Shown: positions 2 through 19,261 of the stretch, one piece after another
How the letters are laid out: every line of letters starts with the position of its first letter
How positions within the stretch are numbered: the first letter of the stretch is position 1
NCBI GenBank assembly: GCA_019429045.1
Contig: JAHYJL010000010.1
Coordinates: 1 to 35,073, forward strand
DNA from: Bacteroidales bacterium
Lineage (GTDB): Bacteria > Bacteroidota > Bacteroidia > Bacteroidales > JAGOPY01
Length of the DNA: 35,073 nucleotides
Direction: 5' to 3'
The notes under the pieces: generated by a model
Databases searched by the model: none
Told to the model about the DNA's origin: nothing
What the model saw: only the letters and a program-made list of their open reading frames with translations
Translations under genes and position numbers: made by a program

Positions 2-988
2 AATGTGCGGGTGGTTTTCGGCGATCCCGACCGCGACCGAAAAGCCGACGTGATCCTGGAGAACCATTATTATCCCTTCGGCATGACCTTTGGCGGGCTG
101 GAATATTCCGCCGGGTTGGAGAACCGCTACCTTTACCAGGGCAAGGAGACCACCGGCGATTTCGGCCTGTGGTGGAGCGATTTTTCCGCCCGCCGGTTCG
201 ACAGCCAATTAGGCCGCTGGCACATCCCCGATCCCGCCGGCCAGTTCGCCAGTCCGTATCTGGGCATGGGGAACAGCCCGGTGGCGGCCGTGGATCCCAG
301 CGGTTTATGGGCTGTCGACGGCAGGTTTGCCGAAATGCAAATGCTGCGCCAGGCAGAGCAAAAAGTACGGGATTTTCAGAAGCAGCTAATGGAATCGTTT
401 TCCTATGAGGAGATGGAGCGTGAGCTTGAAATGATGCTCTTATGGGAAGATATATTAAGTGGAAAATACAAAAAGGATGCCGGCATAGGACAACCGGAGC
501 TGGAAGGTAGCCCGGATGATCCGCCGGGGAATAATCTGCAAAACGGAAACAATGGAAATAAGAACCCTGATATTAACAGCCCTGGATTGATCACTCAAGC
601 AGGATTAACATTCACGCTTGCAGCTGGTATTATTGGAGGAAGTATTGAATTCGGAATCGCTTATGATGGTATTAATTATAGTCTATATTTAACATTAGAA
701 CATTCAACTGGTTTTGATATTTCTGCAGGTGGAATCGTAAATGTACTGATCTCGTCTGAAGGACATCTGACTTTTGATCAAGTGGAAGGTTGGGGAGAAT
801 CTTACAATAGTGCAATATGGATAATCGATGGCACCTATGGAGGAGATTCATTTTACCCAGGATTAAAATATGAAGATTACAGAGATATTCATAATACTTA
901 CCAGATTTACGGATTGGGACTCTCTTGGGGTTTGCCAATAGGATTTACAAAGAATAAAGGGTATTCTTGGTATTTCTTAAAATTTTAA
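2..988 (+). CDS. RHS repeat-associated core protein, C-terminal part with variable tip (5' end outside window)
   Basis: This is the 3' end of a large RHS/YD-repeat protein; the frame is open to the left edge, so the start lies outside. Residues about 20-100 are the conserved RHS core end, with YYPFGM, YLYQGKE, DFSARRFDSQLGRW, PDPAGQF, and the NSPVAAVDPSGLW stretch that closes the RHS shell. After a linker rich in Glu, Met and Gln (about residues 104-145) base composition drops from GC-rich to AT-rich, and a tip of about 190 residues follows. The tip is Gly-, Tyr- and beta-rich and I recognise no toxin family or nuclease motif in it. In RHS proteins the shell encloses a toxic C-terminal tip that is autocleaved and delivered to rivals; toxicity of this tip is inference. 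A small membrane-protein gene begins 10 bp after the stop, where a cognate immunity gene is expected. Confidence 0.88.
   Translation, partial: NVRVVFGDPDRDRKADVILENHYYPFGMTFGGLEYSAGLENRYLYQGKETTGDFGLWWSDFSARRFDSQLGRWHIPDPAGQFASPYLGMGNSPVAAVDPSGLWAVDGRFAEMQMLRQAEQKVRDFQKQLMESFSYEEMERELEMMLLWEDILSGKYKKDAGIGQPELEGSPDDPPGNNLQNGNNGNKNPDINSPGLITQAGLTFTLAAGIIGGSIEFGIAYDGINYSLYLTLEHSTGFDISAGGIVNVLISSEGHLTFDQVEGWGESYNSAIWIIDGTYGGDSFYPGLKYEDYRDIHNTYQIYGLGLSWGLPIGFTKNKGYSWYFLKF
223..416 (+). repeat. RHS core-end direct repeat, copy 1 (in the intact gene)
   Basis: About 194 bp covering the end of the RHS core (IPDPAGQF to SFSYEEM). It recurs at 1736-1929 at a constant offset of 1513 bp with about 90% identity. 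Similarity ends where the variable tip begins, which is the pattern expected when tips are exchanged by recombination in the conserved core. Confidence 0.93.
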
Positions 989-1352: not shown

Positions 1353-1735
1353 GCCAAAGTATTATGGTGGTCTGATATATTAAATAGTCTTACCAGACGA
1401 TAACATCACAGACAGCGAAATGACAAAACTCAATGAATCCTGCACCATTCCACCTCTCCCGTCAATTAGACTGGAGGAGGCCGGAAAAAGTACCGGCTCG
1501 TCCATCGGCAGCAAAATGCCGATGTCTGTTCAGCATAATCATATAGCACATCTTCCATGTCCCATCGCCCATGATGCAATGCAAGTTGGTATTTGGCATA
1601 TAATAATTGGGATATCCCATTGTAAATGGGCACATGGGCGATGGAAGAAGGGCGATGGCGAAGTGTTCCCAGGGTGAAACAAAAAAAAATGAGCAGGATC
1701 TATGATATACCCTCGCCGGGAGGGGCTGGCCGGCC
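1353..1735. other. Gap between RHS modules: repeat element plus a breakpoint region
   Basis: No convincing gene. Positions 1405-1639 are copy 1 of the hairpin-rich repeat described separately. The remaining part, 1640-1735, joins directly to the middle of the RHS core at 1736 and holds a small hairpin (CCCTC/GAGGG around 1711-1725). It does not resemble RHS coding sequence, so it marks the 5' breakpoint of the orphan tip. Confidence 0.6.
1405..1639. repeat. 235-bp structured intergenic repeat, copy 1
   Basis: Matches 3474-3708 at a constant offset of 2069 bp without net insertion or deletion. The part from 1491 onward is about 95% identical; the left part is more diverged. It holds several inverted repeats: GCCGG/CCGGC near 1480-1498, ATCGGCA/TGCCGAT at about 1504-1523, CCATCGCCCATG pairing with CATGGGCGATGG across about 1562-1645, and CCCATT/AATGGG at 1616-1630. 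The last stem is kept by paired changes in copy 2. It sits directly after an RHS tip plus partner gene in both places. Confidence 0.9.
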
Positions 1736-1929
1736 CATCCCCGATCCCGCCGGGCAGTTCGCCAGCCCGTATCTGGGCATGGGGAACAGCCCGGTGGCGG
1801 CCGTGGATCCCAGCGGTTTATGGGCTGTCGGCGGCAGGTTTGCCGAAATGCAAATGCTGCAGCAGGCGGAACAAAAAGTCCGGGATTTTCAGAGGCAGCT
1901 CATGGAATCGTTTTCCTATGAGGAAATGA
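1736..1929 (+). repeat. RHS core-end direct repeat, copy 2 (in the orphan tip)
   Basis: Second copy of 223-416 in the same reading direction. Mostly single-base differences; the encoded linker changes by a few residues (D to G, R to Q, K to R). Its left end is a sharp breakpoint. Confidence 0.93.
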
Positions 1930-2501
1930 TGCGATCACTACAGCAGGAACTATTATGGAACGAGTTTATCGATGATCCATTTGGGTGGGGAGAAGCTAAT
2001 AGCAGACAGATTGATATACCAGAACGTTTGTTGATCAATTCCGAACTTTTAAACCAGCCAACAAGTGTGCCTACTATTGAAGAGATGCAGGCAACAATGA
2101 ACAATGCAATAAAGATAATGAGGCAATTTTATTTATTGCAATTAGAAAATAAAAAACCAGATAAATTATTCTATCCAGTTGACTTCAATTTCAACGGTAA
2201 AATTGGAAGTCCCGATATATTTGGTGGCCGTAACTATCGTTATGATATTACATTATCATTGGGATTGCAGGAGGTATCAGCTGTTTTTATTTTTACCCCT
2301 CATGAAAATCCAATTGCCAATTTTTTAACAAATTTTATTCCTTTAGGTTATCGAAGAAAGTCTGTTTATGAAGTATATACCGGTTACGGTGTAGAATTGC
2401 ATAATTACTATTCACGCATACGTCAATGGACGATTGGTCTTTTGTACTTTTCGAGTTTTGAAGATTATAATAATTTTCTTATATATGTCAGATATCCGTA
2501 A
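1736..2501 (+). pseudogene. Orphan RHS tip (headless core fragment plus a second variable C-terminal domain)
   Basis: The fragment enters the RHS core abruptly at IPDPAGQF, repeats the core end and linker of the upstream gene, then continues into a different 190-residue AT-rich tip (begins near position 1930; contains a Tyr/Phe-rich beta-type C terminus). The upstream flank has no RHS sequence; the only in-frame starts upstream (from 1626) lie in unrelated repeat DNA, so it is unlikely to be made as a working protein alone. It fits the orphan or silent rhs-CT cassettes known from Rhs and CDI loci, which can replace the active tip by recombination in the shared core. The tip itself is not recognised. 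Confidence 0.82.
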
Positions 2502-3393
2502 GTTTAATTATAAAAGATACAGCATATTAGCGATACTTTCTTTCGTTATATTGATTTACGGAATCATTTGGCTGGCTCCGAAAATAAGTATGTACATGTG
2601 GCTTAAATCCAATGAGTTTGATTCATACAGGAATGGCCTGGGCAAATACCTTCATTTATTTCATTCACATTATCTCCGAACACCTGTAAATTCAGCGGAA
2701 TTCATCTTTTTCTTAGAAAACTTTTATGCCGATTTACCTGATGAGTATTTGAAATTTATTCTGGAAACAAGTTTAAAACACAGTTCAAGGATCATTTTTT
2801 CGTCTGAAAATGATACAACTGTTATCGTTTTGTTTTCCCCTGGATTGTCATGTATTGATAGTGCGTTATCCAATAGCCCGGCAATAAAAGCAATAGATGA
2901 CGTATCCATTCCCGACATTTTATTCAGAAATAATTCAATATTCAATTTAACAGAATATGACTTTCCGGAATTTTGCTATTCCTATTTCCATAGCTATCGC
3001 GTATTCCTGGATAATATACCATATTTCAGCTACCCTGGTATTGACGAATCAATTGATGCCTTTGTATCAACATTGATACATAATTTTTATAATGATTTAA
3101 GTTTGGAGATATCACAAAAGCCTATAAGCAATGATACATTACAAGTGGTATTAAAATTTCTTGTAAAACTATTACCTGCCGGGTCTGGTTTCCTGTCAGA
3201 ATTCACCTGTTACAATTTCAAAAAGGAATCTGAGTTTCACCGCTTCAGGAATTATTTCAATTCGGGCATATCCAATTTGTCAATTGAACCAAAGCCTGAT
3301 AGCATTTATCTGCCTGTATTTGTTTCCCACAATACCAAAACCGGAATGTTGAATATACATACCTATACAAAACATTCAGAGTACATACATTAA
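2485..3393 (+). CDS. Single-pass membrane-anchored protein, candidate partner or immunity protein of the orphan RHS tip
   Basis: I place the start at ATG 2485 (MSDIRKFNYKRYS) because earlier in-frame starts lie inside the tip coding region. It overlaps the tip stop by 17 bp, indicating translational coupling in the ancestral locus. The protein has 302 residues: a basic N terminus, one transmembrane helix at about residues 13-33, and a long, mainly extracytoplasmic domain without recognised motifs. Base composition is AT-rich like the tip. Pairing with the tip suggests an immunity role, but it is larger than most immunity proteins, so it could be an accessory or fused immunity protein. Function is inference from context. 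Confidence 0.7.
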   Translation: MSDIRKFNYKRYSILAILSFVILIYGIIWLAPKISMYMWLKSNEFDSYRNGLGKYLHLFHSHYLRTPVNSAEFIFFLENFYADLPDEYLKFILETSLKHSSRIIFSSENDTTVIVLFSPGLSCIDSALSNSPAIKAIDDVSIPDILFRNNSIFNLTEYDFPEFCYSYFHSYRVFLDNIPYFSYPGIDESIDAFVSTLIHNFYNDLSLEISQKPISNDTLQVVLKFLVKLLPAGSGFLSEFTCYNFKKESEFHRFRNYFNSGISNLSIEPKPDSIYLPVFVSHNTKTGMLNIHTYTKHSEYIH

Positions 3394-3833
3394 ATAGTTT
3401 TATTTTCGGAAAGTTAATGGAACTCAATTTAGTAAGGTTATTGCAATGCGTAAATGCCAAAGAACGGGAAACTATCACCGACATCAAAATGAACATAATC
3501 AATGAATCCTGCGCCGCAACGCCACTCCCGTCGGTTAGACGGGAGGAGGCCGGAAAAAGTGCCGGCTCGTCCATCGGCAGCAAAATGCCGATGTCTGTTC
3601 AGCATAATCATATAGCACATCTCCCATGTCCCATCGCCCATGATGCAATGCACGTCGGTATTTGGCATATAATAATTGGGATATCCCATAGCATATGGGC
3701 ACATGGGCAGGCGCTGAATGACAATTCTTTGTGAACTTTGTGAGTTCACTCTGAGATCTTTGTGAGATATATTCATGATCGTTGATCTGGATTAAAGACC
3801 GGGAAAGTGAGGAGATTGGGCGGATTCCTAAGC
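3394..3833. other. Gap after the orphan-tip module
   Basis: Holds copy 2 of the structured repeat (3474-3708) and then about 125 bp with a loosely repeated CTTTGTGA word (about 3724-3770). Short reading frames here overlap the repeat hairpins and show no recognisable protein. I see no gene and no further RHS core sequence. Confidence 0.6.
3474..3708. repeat. 235-bp structured intergenic repeat, copy 2
   Basis: Copy of 1405-1639. It has a perfect 8-bp stem CTCCCGTC/GACGGGAG around 3525-3545, where copy 1 carries one mismatch. It retains the ATCGGCA/TGCCGAT hairpin and has a CCCATA/TATGGG stem (3685-3699) where copy 1 has CCCATT/AATGGG. It follows the partner gene of the orphan tip. Confidence 0.9.
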
Positions 3834-4757
3834 TCAAACCTCTAACTTTTTAAAAATCACCAATGAATCCTTTTCTATTCTGGAGAAGGCAAACCACTTT
3901 TTGCCCAAATCCTTCAGCGAAGCACCAATGTGATACGCGTCAGTTTTATCAATTAACAAAAATCGGTCGTGAGAAGCATTAAATGTATTAAGGCTCAGCC
4001 CACCAAACTGTTCGTTAAACTTTTTAGCATCTTCCTTCAAGGCCCGACTAATGTTTTGGGTGTATATGCTCACGCTTACGCCTTTTTTCTTCTTGGTAAA
4101 AAGCGACAGCACGCTTTCATCCACGTAATTGTCAATCAAAATCAGGCTGGATTTTGCGCTTCTAATCAAATCACTTATCAACACCCAGGCATCAAACACT
4201 TGCCCATTAAAAAATATACCCTGCCGGGGTTTGAGCTCTTTCTTTTCCATGGCAATTAGCAGCAATTGCACTTTACTTTCTGTTATAATTTGCCTGGTTT
4301 CCACCTTTTCAATGCGCTTTAAAAGATCTGCATTTTCCATCAAAAAATACCTCATTTCAACAAAGGCATTCATTATAGCAACACTTGTTTTTATGGCTGT
4401 TTCAGAATTGATTACAGCTGACAGCATTGCAACACCCTGCTCTGTAAAAGCATAAGGCAAATATTTTCTATGTTTTCCTCTACCGGTATTTAAGGTGCCA
4501 TTTTGGAACCTTAAATAATCACCCTCTATTGAGGTGCCAATCAGGAATTTCAATTTTTCATGTTCTTCTTTGGTCAATTGGAACATGAAGGATTCGGGGA
4601 ACCGGTCAGGATTTCTTTTCACAGCACGGTTCAGGTATTTGGTTTCGATGTCATACAATTCTGATAAATGCTCATCAATCATCACCTGCTTGCCCCGAAT
4701 GGTAAAAATCCGGTTGATTATTTGCTGCATATACTTTTGCATTGAATGTTCACTCAT
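3834..4757 (-). CDS. ORF6N domain protein with a C-terminal PLD-like domain
   Basis: 307 residues. Residues about 10-100 form an ORF6N (KilA-N related) DNA-binding domain of phage and mobile-element type: IRGKQVMIDEHLSELYDIET, then LNRAVKRN and RFPESFMFQL, and YAFTEQGVAMLSAV following. A short coiled segment (140-175) leads to a C-terminal domain (180-307) like a half phospholipase-D fold, with HDRFLLID (263-270) in the place of HxKx4D, Lys replaced by Arg, and a GASLKDLGKK stretch after it. Such chromosomal proteins are common in Bacteroidota and often sit beside mobile or variable regions, as here. Start is ATG 4757. The role is probably DNA-binding regulation; enzymatic activity is doubtful. 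Confidence 0.85.
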   Translation of the reverse strand: MSEHSMQKYMQQIINRIFTIRGKQVMIDEHLSELYDIETKYLNRAVKRNPDRFPESFMFQLTKEEHEKLKFLIGTSIEGDYLRFQNGTLNTGRGKHRKYLPYAFTEQGVAMLSAVINSETAIKTSVAIMNAFVEMRYFLMENADLLKRIEKVETRQIITESKVQLLLIAMEKKELKPRQGIFFNGQVFDAWVLISDLIRSAKSSLILIDNYVDESVLSLFTKKKKGVSVSIYTQNISRALKEDAKKFNEQFGGLSLNTFNASHDRFLLIDKTDAYHIGASLKDLGKKWFAFSRIEKDSLVIFKKLEV

Positions 4758-4976: not shown

Positions 4977-6281
4977 ATGCAGATAAAAACTTCTTATCAT
5001 TACATACTTGCAGGAATAATGATGCTCTTATGGGGTGATTTGCACGCTCAAAAGGATGAATACTTCCGGGAAAAAGTTGTCCGTAACGATAATCTTACCT
5101 ACCGCGACAATATCCAGACGGTTTTGCTCTACAAAGCAGGTTTCGAGCTGTCGCCCCCCATTATCCAGCTGGGTACCGCAGATAAGCTGATTCTGTCGTT
5201 CGACGATTTGGACGCGGAGCACAAATCCTTTAAATACACGCTGATCCATTGCGATGCCTACTGGAATGTTTCGACACTGCAGCAGATGGAGTACCTGGAT
5301 GGTTTTTTTGAAGATCGGATCGATGATTACAAATATTCTTTCAACACTACGGTACCGTTCGTGAATTATGTACTGGTTTTCCCGACGGAATACTTGCGGC
5401 TGAAAAAATCGGGGAACTACATCATCAAGGTTTACCTGGGTCCGGACAGGGATGAAAATGTGGTCCTCACGCGGCGCTTTATGGTCTCTGATCCGAAAGT
5501 AAATATTACCGGAAATATCGGGAATACGGTTGACCTGCACCTGCGATACACCCATCAGCAGGTGAATTTCAAGCTGACCCCGGCCAACTACCAGCTTACC
5601 GAGACGCACCGCGACCTTCACGTTTTCATTCAGCAGAACGGCCGCTGGGATAATATGATGCAAAACATCCAGCCGCGGCTGATCAGCGGAGGCGTATATG
5701 ACTTCAGCCAGATGCCGGGACTGGCTTTCGAAGGGGGAAACGAATTCAGGTATTTCGACATGAAAACGCTGCAGTACAATACCGACCGGATGAAGTCGCT
5801 GCAATATACAACAGAGGGTTACCAGGTTGTCCTGCAAACCGATATGCCGAGGGCATACAGCAATTTCCGTTCGGAAGAAGATATCAACGGGCGCCGGCTA
5901 ATTTCAGTGAACCATGCGCAGGATTCCTATACCGAAGGCGATTATGCCTGGGTACACTTCCTGCTGCCTTACCGGGAACCGCTCGACAACGGCAACCTTT
6001 ATGTTTTCGGCGCACTATCCGACTGGCAGTTCAGACCGGAAAACCTGATGCGGTATAACTACGAATTAAAGGCTTACGAGGCGAAGATGTTTCTTAAGCA
6101 GGGATATTATAACTACATCTATGCCTTCCTGGAAAATAATAAAAACACCGGTGATATCACATTAATTGAAGGGAGCTTCTGGGAAACGGAGAATGAATAC
6201 ACCATCCTGGTCTACCACCGCCGGCAGGGCGATGTGTACGATCAGCTCGTAGGAGTCGGATTTCTGAATAGCACTGATTAA
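4977..6281 (+). CDS. Type IX secretion system plug protein (DUF5103 family)
   Basis: The protein starts at ATG 4977 (MQIKTSYHYI), giving a clean signal peptide ending near LHAQ; the earlier in-frame start at 4956 would add seven residues before it. It has 434 residues. The N-terminal DUF5103 part follows the signal peptide with IQLGTADKLILSFDDLD, YTLIHCDAYWN and RRFMVSDPKVNI; the C-terminal part has the Ig/E-set-like YVFGALSDWQF and ends with a short beta-rich tail. In T9SS structural work a protein of this family occludes the SprA translocon on its periplasmic side, holding it closed until substrate binding. No other T9SS gene is in this window. A weak -7-like GACCTTTG lies just upstream (about 4946-4953). 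Confidence 0.87.
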   Translation: MQIKTSYHYILAGIMMLLWGDLHAQKDEYFREKVVRNDNLTYRDNIQTVLLYKAGFELSPPIIQLGTADKLILSFDDLDAEHKSFKYTLIHCDAYWNVSTLQQMEYLDGFFEDRIDDYKYSFNTTVPFVNYVLVFPTEYLRLKKSGNYIIKVYLGPDRDENVVLTRRFMVSDPKVNITGNIGNTVDLHLRYTHQQVNFKLTPANYQLTETHRDLHVFIQQNGRWDNMMQNIQPRLISGGVYDFSQMPGLAFEGGNEFRYFDMKTLQYNTDRMKSLQYTTEGYQVVLQTDMPRAYSNFRSEEDINGRRLISVNHAQDSYTEGDYAWVHFLLPYREPLDNGNLYVFGALSDWQFRPENLMRYNYELKAYEAKMFLKQGYYNYIYAFLENNKNTGDITLIEGSFWETENEYTILVYHRRQGDVYDQLVGVGFLNSTD

Positions 6282-6298
6282 AAGATGGAGTTTCTGGT

Positions 6299-6360
6299 TA
6301 ATGTCCACTTAATGTCCATGAATGTCCACCTAATGTCGCGAGCGCAGCGAGCGAATGTCC
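6299..6360. repeat. Degenerate short tandem repeat (AATGTCC word) between convergent genes
   Basis: Five AATGTC(C) words spaced 10-22 bp (starting about 6300, 6311, 6321, 6332 and 6354) flank a GC-rich GCGAGCGCAGCGAGCG direct repeat. It lies in the 100-bp gap between two converging genes. The GC-rich core could form a hairpin; no T-run makes a standard terminator. Confidence 0.6.
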
Positions 6361-6381
6361 GTGTGATCTTAAATAAAAACC

Positions 6382-7623
6382 CTATTCATAGCGCAGCGAC
6401 TCGATCGGGTCGAGCCGGGCGGCTTTATTGGCGGGGATAATGCCTGAGGCCAGGGCCACGATGAAGCAGAGGGTGACGCCAAGGAAAATCCAGGGCCAGG
6501 GGATGATGAAGCTGCTTTGCAGGATCATGGAAAGCACGTTCCCGATGACAATACCGAATGTGATGCCCAACAGGCCGCCGAGCTGTGCAATGACAACAGC
6601 TTCCACCAGGAACTGGTTCCGGATCACCCGTTGCGTGGCGCCCATGGCTTTCCGGATTCCAATTTCCAACGTGCGCTCTGTGACGGATACGAGCATGATG
6701 TTCATCAACCCTATGGCCGCCCCGAGCAATGTAATCAGACCGATGAACGTTGCCGCCAGTGCCACATATTTGATATTGTCGGTAAGCATTTTGGCGATGC
6801 TGTCGCTTTTACTGATCTGAAATGTCTGCTCCTGCCCTACCCTGTCGCCCCGGACAATCCGGAACACGCCCGTCGCCTCTCCGATGGCCTGTTCCATCAT
6901 CAAGGGATCAGGCACGGTCACACTGATGACAAATGTCCGGTCAGGACGTGGAAAGTACTGCCTGACATTGCTCAGCGGCAGGATGCAGTCACGGTCGCCC
7001 GAAAAGCCAATGCTCGATCCTTTTTCCTTCATCACGCCGATGACCTGGTACTTACCCGGCCCGATGGAAATGATCTTACCTATGGGATCTTCGTTGGTTT
7101 TGAACAACAGTTTTTCGATCTCACTCCCTATCACGACAACATGGGCCCCGCGATGCACCTCGCTTTCATTGAAGTTCCTCCCCTTGCTGATCTCCTGCCC
7201 GGCGGTGATGAAATAGTTCTCATCCGATCCCCTGACGGTCACATTCGGATTTGATTTTTCCGATTTATATTTCAATGTTGCCGTGTGGGAGGCAAATGTT
7301 GAGATGGAAGTAAATGCCGGGAAATCAAACTGTTGCTTAAAACGCACTGCCTGGTCGTAAGTGATGCGCTTGTACATCTTGGGATCGCTGCGCCTGCCGC
7401 CCATCTGTACCATGATCTCCCGGTTCCGGATAGAAAAAGTGTTGGCTCCCATCATGGCGAAATTCTCATTCAGGAAATATTTTATCGAATCAATGGCTGT
7501 CAGTATGCCCACAAGCGCCATGATACCAAAGGCAATGATCGTAACGGTCAGGATCGTTCGCAGCAGGTGGCTGCGGATCGACTCCAGCGAGATACGGATA
7601 TTTTCCAGGATGAGAAGTTTCAT
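6382..7623 (-). CDS. MacB/FtsX-type ABC transporter permease
   Basis: 413 residues. One N-terminal transmembrane helix (about 22-45), a periplasmic MacB_PCD domain (about 50-250), then three helices (about 285-310, 335-360, 375-400) with the FtsX signature TERTLEIGIRKAMGAT before the second-last helix, and the typical end PANKAARLDPIESLRYE. Start is ATG 7623, which overlaps the upstream gene's TGA by one base. MacB-type permeases couple to a LolD/MacB-like ATPase for mechanotransmission or export across the envelope; no ATPase gene is next to it, so it must recruit one from elsewhere or the pair is split. As last gene of the operon it may export or place the product. Confidence 0.93.
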   Translation of the reverse strand: MKLLILENIRISLESIRSHLLRTILTVTIIAFGIMALVGILTAIDSIKYFLNENFAMMGANTFSIRNREIMVQMGGRRSDPKMYKRITYDQAVRFKQQFDFPAFTSISTFASHTATLKYKSEKSNPNVTVRGSDENYFITAGQEISKGRNFNESEVHRGAHVVVIGSEIEKLLFKTNEDPIGKIISIGPGKYQVIGVMKEKGSSIGFSGDRDCILPLSNVRQYFPRPDRTFVISVTVPDPLMMEQAIGEATGVFRIVRGDRVGQEQTFQISKSDSIAKMLTDNIKYVALAATFIGLITLLGAAIGLMNIMLVSVTERTLEIGIRKAMGATQRVIRNQFLVEAVVIAQLGGLLGITFGIVIGNVLSMILQSSFIIPWPWIFLGVTLCFIVALASGIIPANKAARLDPIESLRYE

Positions 7624-8564
7624 CAACGCAAAGATAATGATTTATAAGCCTTCGCTACTATCCTCGCCAACCATGGCAGCCGGTTGAGATGGAGCCGCAT
7701 GTAAACACATTCCCGTGAGCCGAAGCTTTTATAAAACCTGGCCAGGTTGGGGTCGTTGGAGCCGTCGAAATCAAATGTAAGATGGCGGCCGGCGTGATGA
7801 CGGATATAGCTGTCGATCAAAAATGGCATGGCGCCCGCGGCACGTCCCTCTCCGCTGAGCCCTGAAAAAAGGAAAATGGCCTTGTTATTGCTCCGGATGA
7901 AAAAGGCCCCCGCGCAGAGCTGGTTTCTCCGGTCATAGGCGCCCCAGATATTCGCTATCCCCTTGTAAATACAGGTATATGCCAGTCGCTTGAGCCGCAG
8001 GTAATCGGCATCCCGGAGATGTTTGAGCTCACCGCCCCGGTTTGCCCGGAACAGGTCGATGATGTCGTCGGGACGGATATTTTTGGAAATTGTCAGCCCG
8101 GCCTTCTCAGCCTTCTTGATGTTCCGGGCAAGGTTTTCGGAATAGTTTTCACGGATTTTCGGGTAGGAATGGATCAGGTCCAGTTCGTGGTTGATTTGCG
8201 GGATCAGTCTGAAGTCTTTCTCATCCACCTTATTCAGGGTATTCAGGTTGATCTCCACCTGTTTGAACCTCACCGGGATGGCCCGGATAAAATTCCCCAA
8301 TACCTCCGCATCGAGCCGGTGAACCGAATACAGTCCGAGTTGCTGGGTGAAAAAGGGCTGATAGATATAGGATATCCCGAATTTTCTCCTGTGCACCAGC
8401 GGAAAGACGCGCTCGTAATCGCCTTCGATAAGTGCATCCCACTCACCCTGTGCTACAATATCCAGAAACCAGGAATATCCGTAAAGGTTCCCGTTGAATG
8501 ACCGGCCGATGCAACCGTCCCATTTCTCATTGTCGATATCTTTTCTCTCCAGGTACCGGATCAT
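7623..8564 (-). CDS. FemAB-like / GNAT-fold acyl or aminoacyl transferase
   Basis: 313 residues from ATG 8564, chosen because it overlaps the preceding stop as ATGA; an upstream TTG would run 51 bp into the previous gene. Features of the peptidoglycan-bridge (FemAB) acyltransferase group: an N-terminal half ending in a long strand pair, then LARNIKKAEKAGLTI (basic helix before the second GNAT domain), LCAGAFFIRSNNKAIFLFSGLS, and FDFDGSNDPNLARFYKSFG near the C terminus. Classical Fem enzymes move amino acids from aminoacyl-tRNA to lipid II; relatives linked with exopolysaccharide loci exist in other phyla. Here a carrier-protein-bound donor is possible given the operon. Substrate is unknown. 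Confidence 0.8.
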   Translation of the reverse strand: MIRYLERKDIDNEKWDGCIGRSFNGNLYGYSWFLDIVAQGEWDALIEGDYERVFPLVHRRKFGISYIYQPFFTQQLGLYSVHRLDAEVLGNFIRAIPVRFKQVEINLNTLNKVDEKDFRLIPQINHELDLIHSYPKIRENYSENLARNIKKAEKAGLTISKNIRPDDIIDLFRANRGGELKHLRDADYLRLKRLAYTCIYKGIANIWGAYDRRNQLCAGAFFIRSNNKAIFLFSGLSGEGRAAGAMPFLIDSYIRHHAGRHLTFDFDGSNDPNLARFYKSFGSRECVYMRLHLNRLPWLARIVAKAYKSLSLR

Positions 8565-9874
8565 GCCGTTGTGTTTGCGAATTTCGACAAAATGCCTTCG
8601 AGTAATCCGCGCCATCCCCGGTATGGCCCGCGGTCGCTCAACGCATAATTATGCCAGATCCCGATGGCTTCTCCGCCGTACTGGCTGACGAGGCCGGTGA
8701 GCTTCACCGCTTCTTCCAGCGCCTGTTCCGGGGAATATTTTAATTGGTCCGCCATGGCCGAGTCCATGAAAATGAACGGGTGCAGGGTCAGTTTGGTTGC
8801 CTCTTCCTTCAGGAGATCATAGAATAAAAAAGGAGTGGCCGTACCCGCCCTGAAACCATTGACAGTGGAATAGCCCAGCGAGTAATCATCGGTAAATCCC
8901 AGGTCAATAAGGGTCCGGTATGACTGCGGAAAGCCAAGGCGGAGGTAATGAAAGCGGCTCATATGCACGGGCTTGCCGGTGATGTTTTCCAGGCGGCTTT
9001 TTTCGACCCGGATCTGCGCCGGTCGAAGGTGGGAACGATAGGAAGGATGAATCCCGATTTCTGCCCTAATGCTCAGCATCCGGATCAATTCCCTGAATTT
9101 CAACCCCTTGTAATCGGTGTTCCGGTCATGCTTTCCAAAATCACTCATCAAGACGAAATACAATGGGTGATATCCATATTTTCCTGCCAGTTCCAGTTGA
9201 TAATCGAAATTGTCAAACGGGTCCTTCATTTTCCCCCGGATGGTCAGCCGGCGTTCCTGTATCTGGCCGATATCGGCCTTCAGTAAAAGTTTCAGCCAGG
9301 CTGCAGTGGCCCTCATCCATCCTTTGCCCAGGTGCGCAAAGGCGATATCGATATCGAATGAAGGGATGAACCGGAAAGCCCCTGAGGGGAAATTCAAATG
9401 CGGGAAATTTTCGACGAGCAGAGCTTTCAGCCGGTCTGCAAGAATATCAGCCAGGGGTATGTCTAAAAAGCCATCCCTGTAAGCCAGGCTCATGAGAGCA
9501 GGGAAACGCCCGTGCGCATCGGGCTGAAATGGAAGGTATTCCTCATACCGGGTAACCAGGAAAAAGATCAGTGCAAAGGGATCGAACGGCCATGCCGATA
9601 GTCCGTCCGCCTGGAAGAAAATAGGAAGTCCCTGCCAGCGGGTGACCCTGATATTTTGTTCCCTAACCCCTTTCTCTTTCAATAAAGTATGCGACAGAAA
9701 ATGCAGCCGCGAACCGGGATTGTCAGCTCCATAGCTGAATTTTGGACCGGTAAAGCAAACAAACTCAGCCCTGTCATGCGTGAGCCTGTATTCCAATCCC
9801 AGCAAATCTCCAAGAATAAATCTGAAGATATAAGCATGCCGCGGGTTGATATGGTCACAATACACCAGGATCAT
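8561..9874 (-). CDS. Polysaccharide deacetylase family protein
   Basis: 437 residues from ATG 9874 (MILVYCDHINPRH); the upstream in-frame TTG at 9892 is less likely. It overlaps the previous gene's 3' end by 20 bp and the next gene by 4 bp (ATGA). An N-terminal accessory domain (1-170) precedes a NodB-like barrel: FIPSFDIDIAFAH carries the catalytic/metal Asp pair, YPLYFVL-like strands follow (here YHPLYFVLMSDF), IGIHPSYRS supplies the metal-binding His region, and HPFIFMD and IGIWHNYALSD the late motifs. The family removes N-acetyl groups from glycans. In this operon it could expose amines on a glycan that the neighbouring transferases then modify; that is inference. Confidence 0.86.
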   Translation of the reverse strand: MILVYCDHINPRHAYIFRFILGDLLGLEYRLTHDRAEFVCFTGPKFSYGADNPGSRLHFLSHTLLKEKGVREQNIRVTRWQGLPIFFQADGLSAWPFDPFALIFFLVTRYEEYLPFQPDAHGRFPALMSLAYRDGFLDIPLADILADRLKALLVENFPHLNFPSGAFRFIPSFDIDIAFAHLGKGWMRATAAWLKLLLKADIGQIQERRLTIRGKMKDPFDNFDYQLELAGKYGYHPLYFVLMSDFGKHDRNTDYKGLKFRELIRMLSIRAEIGIHPSYRSHLRPAQIRVEKSRLENITGKPVHMSRFHYLRLGFPQSYRTLIDLGFTDDYSLGYSTVNGFRAGTATPFLFYDLLKEEATKLTLHPFIFMDSAMADQLKYSPEQALEEAVKLTGLVSQYGGEAIGIWHNYALSDRGPYRGWRGLLEGILSKFANTTA

Positions 9875-18838: not shown

Positions 18839-19186
18839 CAAAACGCTTACAATAATAAAGGGCACAGAAAAAAAATATGCACTCCCATATCAAATAAAGA
18901 TAAACAATTAAACCACAAGCCTTCTGGACCGGACGAAAAGAAGGAAACCATCTCACTTGCTTGTCAGTCAGTAAAATTTATAAATATACCCGGTCAAAAT
19001 AAAAAAGGGGGTGTCTCAAAAGTCTATGCAATCGAATTACTGCCTGGATTTGGGTCGTGCTCCAACGACTAAAGCCGTTGGTTCCGAGTATGTTACAAAA
19101 GTTGGAACCGACGGCTTCAGTCGTCGGACTACTAAAAAAACGAAACTTTTTGACTTCTGAGACAGCCTCTTAAAATCTGCAAAGTG
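18839..19186. other. Gap between the M16 peptidase gene and tRNA-Val
   Basis: Nothing coding is supported. 18839-19006 is AT-rich unique sequence; 19007-19169 is the MITE-like element; a short spacer then leads to the tRNA 3' end. Confidence 0.5.
19007..19169. mobile_element. MITE-like element with terminal inverted repeats
   Basis: 163 bp bounded by GGGGGTGTCTCAAAAGTC (19007-19024) and its inverse GAGGCTGTCTCAGAAGTC (read on minus, 19169-19152), matching at 15 of 18 positions. Inside is a second inverted repeat: 25-bp arms at 19061-19085 and 19104-19128 with three mismatches, around an 18-nt loop. There is no room for a transposase. The GTCTCA-type ends resemble those of some IS1182/IS4-like elements (recollection, not checked), which may move it in trans. 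A target duplication is not clear; A/T-rich sequence flanks both ends. The hairpin may also act as an RNA structure or terminator between tRNA and peptidase gene. Confidence 0.78.
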
Positions 19187-19261
19187 TGGGAGTTACTGGA
19201 TTCGAACCAGTGACTTTCTGCTTGTAAGGCAGACGCTCTGAACCAACTGAGCTAAACTCCC
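19187..19261 (-). tRNA. tRNA-Val (anticodon TAC)
   Basis: 75 nt on the minus strand. Seven-base acceptor stem GGGAGTT/AACTCCC with discriminator A; D stem GCTC/GAGC; anticodon stem TCTGC/GCAGA around loop CTTACAA, anticodon TAC; 5-nt variable loop; T stem ACTGG/CCAGT with loop TTCGAAT. All stems pair fully. CCA is not encoded (ACAC follows). TAC reads GUA and other valine codons by wobble. A consensus promoter lies just upstream. Confidence 0.98.

What the first reader, a model, noticed from the sequence alone, without database searches (positions are those of the whole stretch)
1405..3708. Pair of 235-bp hairpin-rich repeats following each RHS module, with paired compensatory changes
The two copies align without indels over 235 bp. 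The stem CCCATT/AATGGG (1616-1630) becomes CCCATA/TATGGG (3685-3699): both sides changed together. Another stem is perfect in copy 2 and one base off in copy 1. Compensation suggests selection on a folded RNA or single-stranded DNA, for example a regulatory RNA, a termination structure, or a recombination/cassette end.
Basis: seen in the sequence. Interest (0 to 1): 0.68.

Follow-up and report, generated by a model that had tools for sequence, protein, structure and literature searches.

The report
Palindromic repeats ending duplicated RHS toxin-cassettes
The two 235-bp repeats are real, but they are best read as copied stretches of palindromic 'filler' DNA that sit after each of two swappable RHS (toxin-type) cassettes and belong partly to a small repeat family found only in this genome; there is no good evidence that they make a functional RNA.

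Summary
Window 1405-1639 and 3474-3708 align over 235 bp without indels (211/235 identical) and are hairpin-rich. The paired T-A to A-T change at 1621/1625 exists.

The inference drawn from it does not hold. It is a single pair, it lies outside the minimum-energy fold of either copy, and simulation gives such an event in 1.6-7% of cases (44% if the changed positions are kept). The stem is absent from the repeat's relatives, and RNAalifold's covariation term is unfavourable.

The full repeat occurs only twice, at the genome's only RHS core. Its 3' ~105 bp belong to a small family of imperfect palindromes ('H'). Five further clear copies and one weak copy lie away from RHS. Several of these abut a diversity-generating retroelement and REP repeats. 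H was absent from 392 other genomes of the order.

The layout is [core end, tip, second ORF, repeat] twice, with core ends 93% identical. This matches the known displaced-tip RHS arrays. The repeats are most likely the cassettes' duplicated 3' flank, a composite of palindromic DNA elements that could serve as a second homology block for recombination. In the same-genus genome, RHS cassettes are followed by unrelated palindromic arrays. A small ORF or a dedicated cassette-end site remains possible but weakly supported.

The parts
2..988 (+). RHS core end plus variable C-terminal tip A (ORF open at contig start)
   Evidence: TIGR03696 Rhs_assc_core E=6e-12 over residues 23-102; only RHS core in the genome
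999..1352 (+). 117-aa ORF directly after tip A, probable immunity gene by position (inferred)
   Evidence: ORF list; no Pfam/NCBIfam match
216..420 (+). RHS core-end repeat, copy A
   Evidence: 93% identical to 1729-1933 over 205 bp; dN/dS 0.24
1405..1639 (+). 235-bp hairpin-rich repeat, copy A (3' flank of cassette A)
1456..1476 (+). hairpin 1 CTCCCGTC-AATTA-GACTGGAG (one mismatch, T1472); a similar hairpin sits inside coding sequences on C36, C60, C198
1480..1497 (+). hairpin 2 GCCGG-AAAAAGTA-CCGGC
   Evidence: sequence; in minimum-energy fold
1503..1524 (+). hairpin 3 CATCGGCA-GCAAAA-TGCCGATG, identical in both copies
1549..1657 (+). H palindrome, complete copy (arms 1549-1573 / 1633-1657)
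   Evidence: inverted repeat I1; covariance model R1 92.6 bits; homologous without indels to dispersed copies
   Evidence: not in minimum-energy fold, not conserved in relatives
1690..2501 (+). displaced RHS tip B with a short core end; possible own start codon at 1690 (the ORF itself opens at 1626)
   Evidence: ORF list; core match 1737-1874
1729..1933 (+). RHS core-end repeat, copy B
2485..3393 (+). 302-aa ORF overlapping the end of tip B, probable immunity or partner gene by position (inferred)
   Evidence: no Pfam/NCBIfam match
3474..3708 (+). 235-bp hairpin-rich repeat, copy B (3' flank of cassette B, the last one)
3525..3545 (+). hairpin 1 in copy B, perfect 8-bp stem
3618..3708 (+). H palindrome, copy B; the repeat ends inside the outer stem
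   Evidence: R1 match 80.8 bits; alignment

Best explanation
The two repeats are the duplicated 3' intergenic flank of two RHS tip cassettes. Each cassette is [end of RHS core, variable tip, following ORF, 235-bp flank]. The flank is a composite of palindromic DNA elements: three short hairpins plus one copy of a ~105-bp imperfect palindrome ('H') that is dispersed in this genome only. Shown: the layout, the paralogy of both flanks (core end 93%, 3' repeat 90%), and the membership of the 3' half in the H family. Inferred: the second copy arose with the tip-displacement or duplication process known for RHS loci; the palindromes are passive REP/MITE-like DNA; and their only likely effect here is to give cassettes a second block of homology for RecA-type recombination.
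For: The full repeat is found only at the single RHS locus. Core ends 216-420/1729-1933 are 93% identical and the repeats 90%, while the tips and following ORFs differ. Displaced-tip arrays with the same layout occur in many genomes of the order, and Jackson et al. 2009 (PMC2935791) describe such arrays and a recombination model. H relatives: C54, C101 x2, C172 x2 (90-96% identical to the C54 copy by BLAST, 59-65% to the window copies in the alignment), plus a weak one on C89. The five clear ones are intergenic and not at RHS. In the same-genus genome G001, repeats follow cassettes including the last one, but they are unrelated GAGACTCCATCTC palindrome arrays; in G095 they are another mosaic. 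So the position recurs while the sequence does not. The genome carries a large REP-like family (131 GGGACTCCRTCCC sites against 1 in the control) with a RAYT-type gene flanked by it.
Against: Conservation is uneven: 61 bp (1493-1553) are unchanged while the first 88 bp differ by 20%, which simple co-duplication explains poorly without gene conversion or constraint. No transposition signature (target-site duplication, empty site) was established for H. Recombination at the flank was not observed. Flank repeats of this kind were seen in only 2 of the 10 other array stretches examined.
Confidence: 0.72

Rival explanations
1. A dedicated single-stranded-DNA or cruciform recombination site that marks the cassette end, recognised by a HuH/Y1 or other recombinase, so that tips move as cassettes.
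For: Palindromic, and sits at the 3' end of both cassettes. H copies on C101 and C54 lie 3' of DGR target/RT genes in the same relative orientation. Four Y1_Tnp genes are present.
Against: H does not flank any of the four Y1_Tnp genes, nor the C74, C27 and C102 DGR-target-like genes. It is absent from RHS arrays of other genomes. C172 copies lie next to unrelated genes. Repeat B ends inside the outer stem.
Confidence: 0.1
2. A structured RNA: regulatory RNA, 3'-UTR stabiliser or terminator after the immunity gene.
For: Folding z about -3.1 to -3.2 for both copies; one compensatory pair.
Against: Compensation near chance; covariation term unfavourable; no Rfam match at gathering score; no terminator-like site; similar z-scores are common in other intergenic stretches (10 of 26 control segments at z<=-2.5 against 18 of 32 RHS flanks).
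Confidence: 0.07
3. A small protein gene (about 80-105 aa) repeated after each cassette.
For: The same frame is open through all 235 bp in both copies without indels; dN/dS 0.47 in that frame with dS 0.19, close to the core's 0.205.
Against: No convincing relative in 392 genomes of the order (best other hit E=0.005, with stops). The homologous frame of the dispersed H copies is interrupted by stops (read from alignment A3). Another frame of this palindromic stretch is also nearly open.
Confidence: 0.06

Closest known systems
Displaced (orphan) RHS tip arrays: Jackson et al. 2009 (PMC2935791), Poole et al. 2011 (PMC3150448), Koskiniemi et al. 2014 (PMC3967940)
   Same: One core followed by core-end fragments, each with a different tip and a following ORF; core ends nearly identical, tips unrelated.
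   Different: Here the 3' flank of each cassette is also a shared repeat. The passages read in these papers stress the core as the homology and do not mention a repeated 3' flank (only passages were read, except part 1 of the Jackson discussion).
REP/BIME elements and RAYT (TnpA-REP), with the atypical Bacteroidetes subclass 2.6 (PMC6006769)
   Same: Genome-specific palindromes in intergenic regions, in mosaics of several kinds; the genome has a REP-like family with a RAYT-type gene.
   Different: H has only 7 clear copies, is ~105 bp, and does not flank a Y1_Tnp gene.
DGR target hairpin/cruciform downstream of VR (Guo et al. 2011, PMC3240598)
   Same: A palindrome downstream of DGR target genes; C101a lies 30 bp after a target-type gene's stop.
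   Different: DGR hairpins have 7-10 bp stems, 4-nt GRNA loops, 4-34 bp from VR; H has a ~57-nt interior, variable distance (30 bp to 2 kb) and also occurs at RHS.

Membership tests
Displaced RHS tip cassette array | RHS core domain present upstream | tested here: met
   TIGR03696 E=6e-12; the contig starts inside the core so the rest is not visible
Displaced RHS tip cassette array | downstream fragment with near-identical core end and an unrelated tip | tested here: met
   216-420 vs 1729-1933 93% identical; no repeat between the tips
Displaced RHS tip cassette array | tip toxic and following ORF neutralising | not testable with these tools
   no family match for either
Structured RNA family | covariation above chance in an alignment of homologues | tested here: not met
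   A3: covariation term +1.45; 3 of 23 pairs doubly changed, reached by 73/500 shuffles; only 7 sequences in two subfamilies
Structured RNA family | match to a known family | tested here: not met
REP/RAYT element | many short palindromic copies per genome | tested here: not met
   H: 7 clear copies plus one weak
REP/RAYT element | flanks its cognate Y1 transposase gene | tested here: not met
   no R1 match near the four Y1_Tnp genes
MITE-like element | inverted terminal arms, dispersed copies | tested here: met
   arms 25 nt, 80% complementary; dispersed copies
MITE-like element | target-site duplication or empty site | tested here: inconclusive
   ends of H blur into REP sequence; no empty site found
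DGR target cruciform | 7-10 bp GC-rich stem, 4-nt GRNA loop, 4-34 bp after VR | tested here: not met
   H has ~57-59 nt between its GCCCATG/CATGGGC arms and lies 30 bp to 2 kb away (PMC3240598)
Integron attC site | RYYYAAC/GTTRRRY ends and an integron integrase | not tested
   not searched for

The most novel reading that the evidence does not exclude
The H palindrome is a genome-specific 'variable-cassette end' element. It marks the 3' side of two unrelated C-terminal diversification systems, RHS tips and DGR-diversified Fib_succ_major proteins, in the same relative orientation, and may act as a cruciform that promotes recombination of the upstream variable segment.
Probability: 0.06. Interest if true: 0.75.

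Novelty: new member of a known kind. Interest (0 to 1): 0.3.

Why it matters
If the ordinary reading is right, it shows that RHS cassettes in this order can carry a shared 3' flank as well as a shared core end. That gives two homology blocks and would make clean cassette exchange by homologous recombination easier. It also warns that 'compensatory changes' between two palindromic paralogues are weak evidence for RNA structure. If the novel reading were right, one DNA element would link two separate diversification systems.

Tried and rejected
(1) RNA: Rfam at gathering and permissive thresholds, RNAalifold, covariance model, pair counts, terminator scan; no support.
(2) Coding: open frame noted, but no convincing homologues in 392 genomes.
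(3) Mobile-element origin in phages or plasmids: no DNA match. Viral contigs: scans with the following ORF's protein and with the hairpin-1 pattern gave nothing.
(4) H in other genomes: none in 392 of the order. The 235-bp DNA query against 394 other genomes of the phylum gave one 31-bp match that looks coding.
(5) General hairpin enrichment after RHS cassettes: 18 of 32 flanks at z<=-2.5 against 10 of 26 other intergenic stretches (6 of 20 when those with H or REP are left out); suggestive at most, and the control comes nearly all from one genome.
(6) H as the DGR target cruciform: shape and distance do not fit.

Full report
WHAT IS THERE. The window is contig C189 of a 2.89-Mb, 239-contig genome. 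It opens inside an RHS core. Reading on the + strand there are two cassettes. Cassette A: core end 216-420, tip to 988, ORF 999-1352, repeat 1405-1639. Cassette B: truncated core end 1729-1933, a different tip to 2501, ORF 2485-3393, repeat 3474-3708. The core ends are 93% identical over 205 bp and the repeats 90% over 235 bp without a gap. A converging gene with an ORF6N domain follows (3834-4757, minus). Only the upstream core end matches TIGR03696, and the genome has no other RHS core.

THE COMPENSATION CLAIM. The both-sided change T1621-A1625 to A-T exists, next to a third change at 1623. The stem competes with TGGG-ATAT-CCCA for the same CCCA, and neither copy's minimum-energy fold contains it. 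In simulated divergence of copy A with 24 random substitutions, a stem of at least six pairs with a doubly changed, still paired position appears in 7% of runs. The figure is 1.6% with the observed regional rates, and 44% when the observed positions are kept and only the bases are random. One such pair is therefore weak evidence. In the five dispersed relatives, three of the six pairs are broken in all five.

THE 3' HALF IS A DISPERSED PALINDROME. Own-genome searches find the complete 235 bp only twice. The last ~105 bp is homologous, almost without indels, to elements on C54, C101 (two) and C172 (two), and more weakly to one on C89. The common plan is CCCATCGCCCATG, about 57 nt, then CACATGGGCGATGGG, with a shorter inner stem. 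The dispersed copies are 90-96% identical to the C54 copy, and 59-65% identical to the window copies in the alignment. A covariance model of seven copies finds no match in 392 other genomes of the order, including one of the same genus. On that alignment 90% of cells are paired, but RNAalifold's covariation term is unfavourable, and the number of doubly changed pairs is reached by 73 of 500 shuffles. This is a DNA palindrome family, restricted to this genome as far as was searched.

THE 5' HALF carries three short hairpins. Hairpin 1 resembles a hairpin found inside coding sequence, near the C-terminus of sorting-domain-like proteins, on C36, C60 and C198, in a different reading frame. Hairpins 2 and 3 have no convincing relatives.

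SURROUNDINGS OF THE OTHER COPIES. The five dispersed H copies each lie within a few tens of bases of GGGACTCCATCCC-type palindromes. These occur 131 times in the genome against one control hit, and they flank a RAYT-type Y1_Tnp gene on C172. Three H copies abut a diversity-generating retroelement or its target genes. On C101 there is an RT gene (PF00078), a template repeat, and a target gene whose variable repeat differs from the template at 44 of 69 adenines and at none of 124 other bases. One H copy lies 30 bp after the stop of a target-type gene, one 83 bp after the RT's stop, and one 380 bp after the C54 target's stop. The two C172 copies lie 2 kb from a target gene with an unrelated gene between. 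Three other target-type genes (C102, C74, C27) have no H. Shared spread with duplicated target genes explains this as well as a function would.

RELATIVES. Displaced-tip arrays are common in the order: 49 of 149 genomes searched (own included) have RHS core-end matches, many in strings every 1.6-2 kb. Ten array stretches were examined. In two of them, G001 (same genus) and G095, a shared noncoding repeat also follows cassettes, including the last one. In G001 these are GAGACTCCATCTC palindrome arrays; in G095 another mosaic. None matches the H model. Folding z-scores of RHS flanks in these genomes (18 of 32 at or below -2.5) are not clearly more extreme than those of other intergenic stretches, nearly all from this genome (10 of 26).

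MECHANISM. Shown: the two flanks are paralogous and composite. From the literature: dissociated tips accumulate downstream of RHS genes, and a model of recombination through the core with a circular intermediate has been proposed (PMC2935791); Salmonella gives evidence for core-mediated fusion of an orphan tip (PMC3967940). Inferred: each cassette here travelled or was duplicated with its 3' flank, and the palindromes arrived in that flank as REP/MITE-like repeats. The near-identity of 1493-1553 may reflect gene conversion. Any role is most likely as a second homology block.

LIMITS. The genome is a fragmented draft; no sister strain or transcript was available. Immunity roles of 999-1352 and 2485-3393 rest on position only.

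Noticed in passing
G000 C101:4050-5316 and 6193-8635 (L214); C54:9301-11526 (L215); C172:27119-28324 (L216): A textbook diversity-generating retroelement: template and variable repeat differ at 44/69 A and 0/124 other bases; several Fib_succ_major target-type genes on other contigs.
   Followed up: partly
G000 C101:4050-5066 (minus): The DGR reverse transcriptase ORF has the YVDD motif but seems to lack the stretch with the usual GLPIGNLTSQ-like block, as if internally shortened; judged by eye, not tested.
   Followed up: no
G000 genome-wide; C172:28808-29155: 131 GGGACTCCRTCCC palindromes (1 control hit) with a RAYT-type gene flanked by them; in the same-genus genome a related-looking GAGACTCCATCTC occurs in arrays.
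   Followed up: partly
G000 C36:15080-15111, C60:15326-15357, C198:1968-1999: A CCCGTC-AATAA-GACGGG hairpin lies inside coding sequence near the C-terminus of what read like T9SS-sorted proteins, like a palindromic insert in a gene.
   Followed up: no
window 18997-19171: A ~175-bp repeat with inverted ends (GGGTGTCTCAAAAGTC .. GACTTCTGAGACAGCC) and an inner hairpin, 93% identical on C54:8838-9013 and 77% on C89:6191-6381, next to a tRNA at 19187-19261; looks like a MITE.
   Followed up: partly
L199 (G001:C18), L200 (G113:C28), L201 (G145:C122), L202 (G107:C7): Tandem strings of four to six RHS core ends every 1.6-3 kb in other genomes of the order.
   Followed up: partly
G000 ends of H copies on C54 (L016) and C172 (L018): A 7-8 bp piece between H and the neighbouring REP reads TTGACCAT in one copy and ATGGTCAA in another, as if inverted in place (template switching?).
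   Followed up: no
window 1493-1553 and 3562-3622: 61 bp without a single difference between the copies while the first 88 bp differ by 20%.
   Followed up: partly
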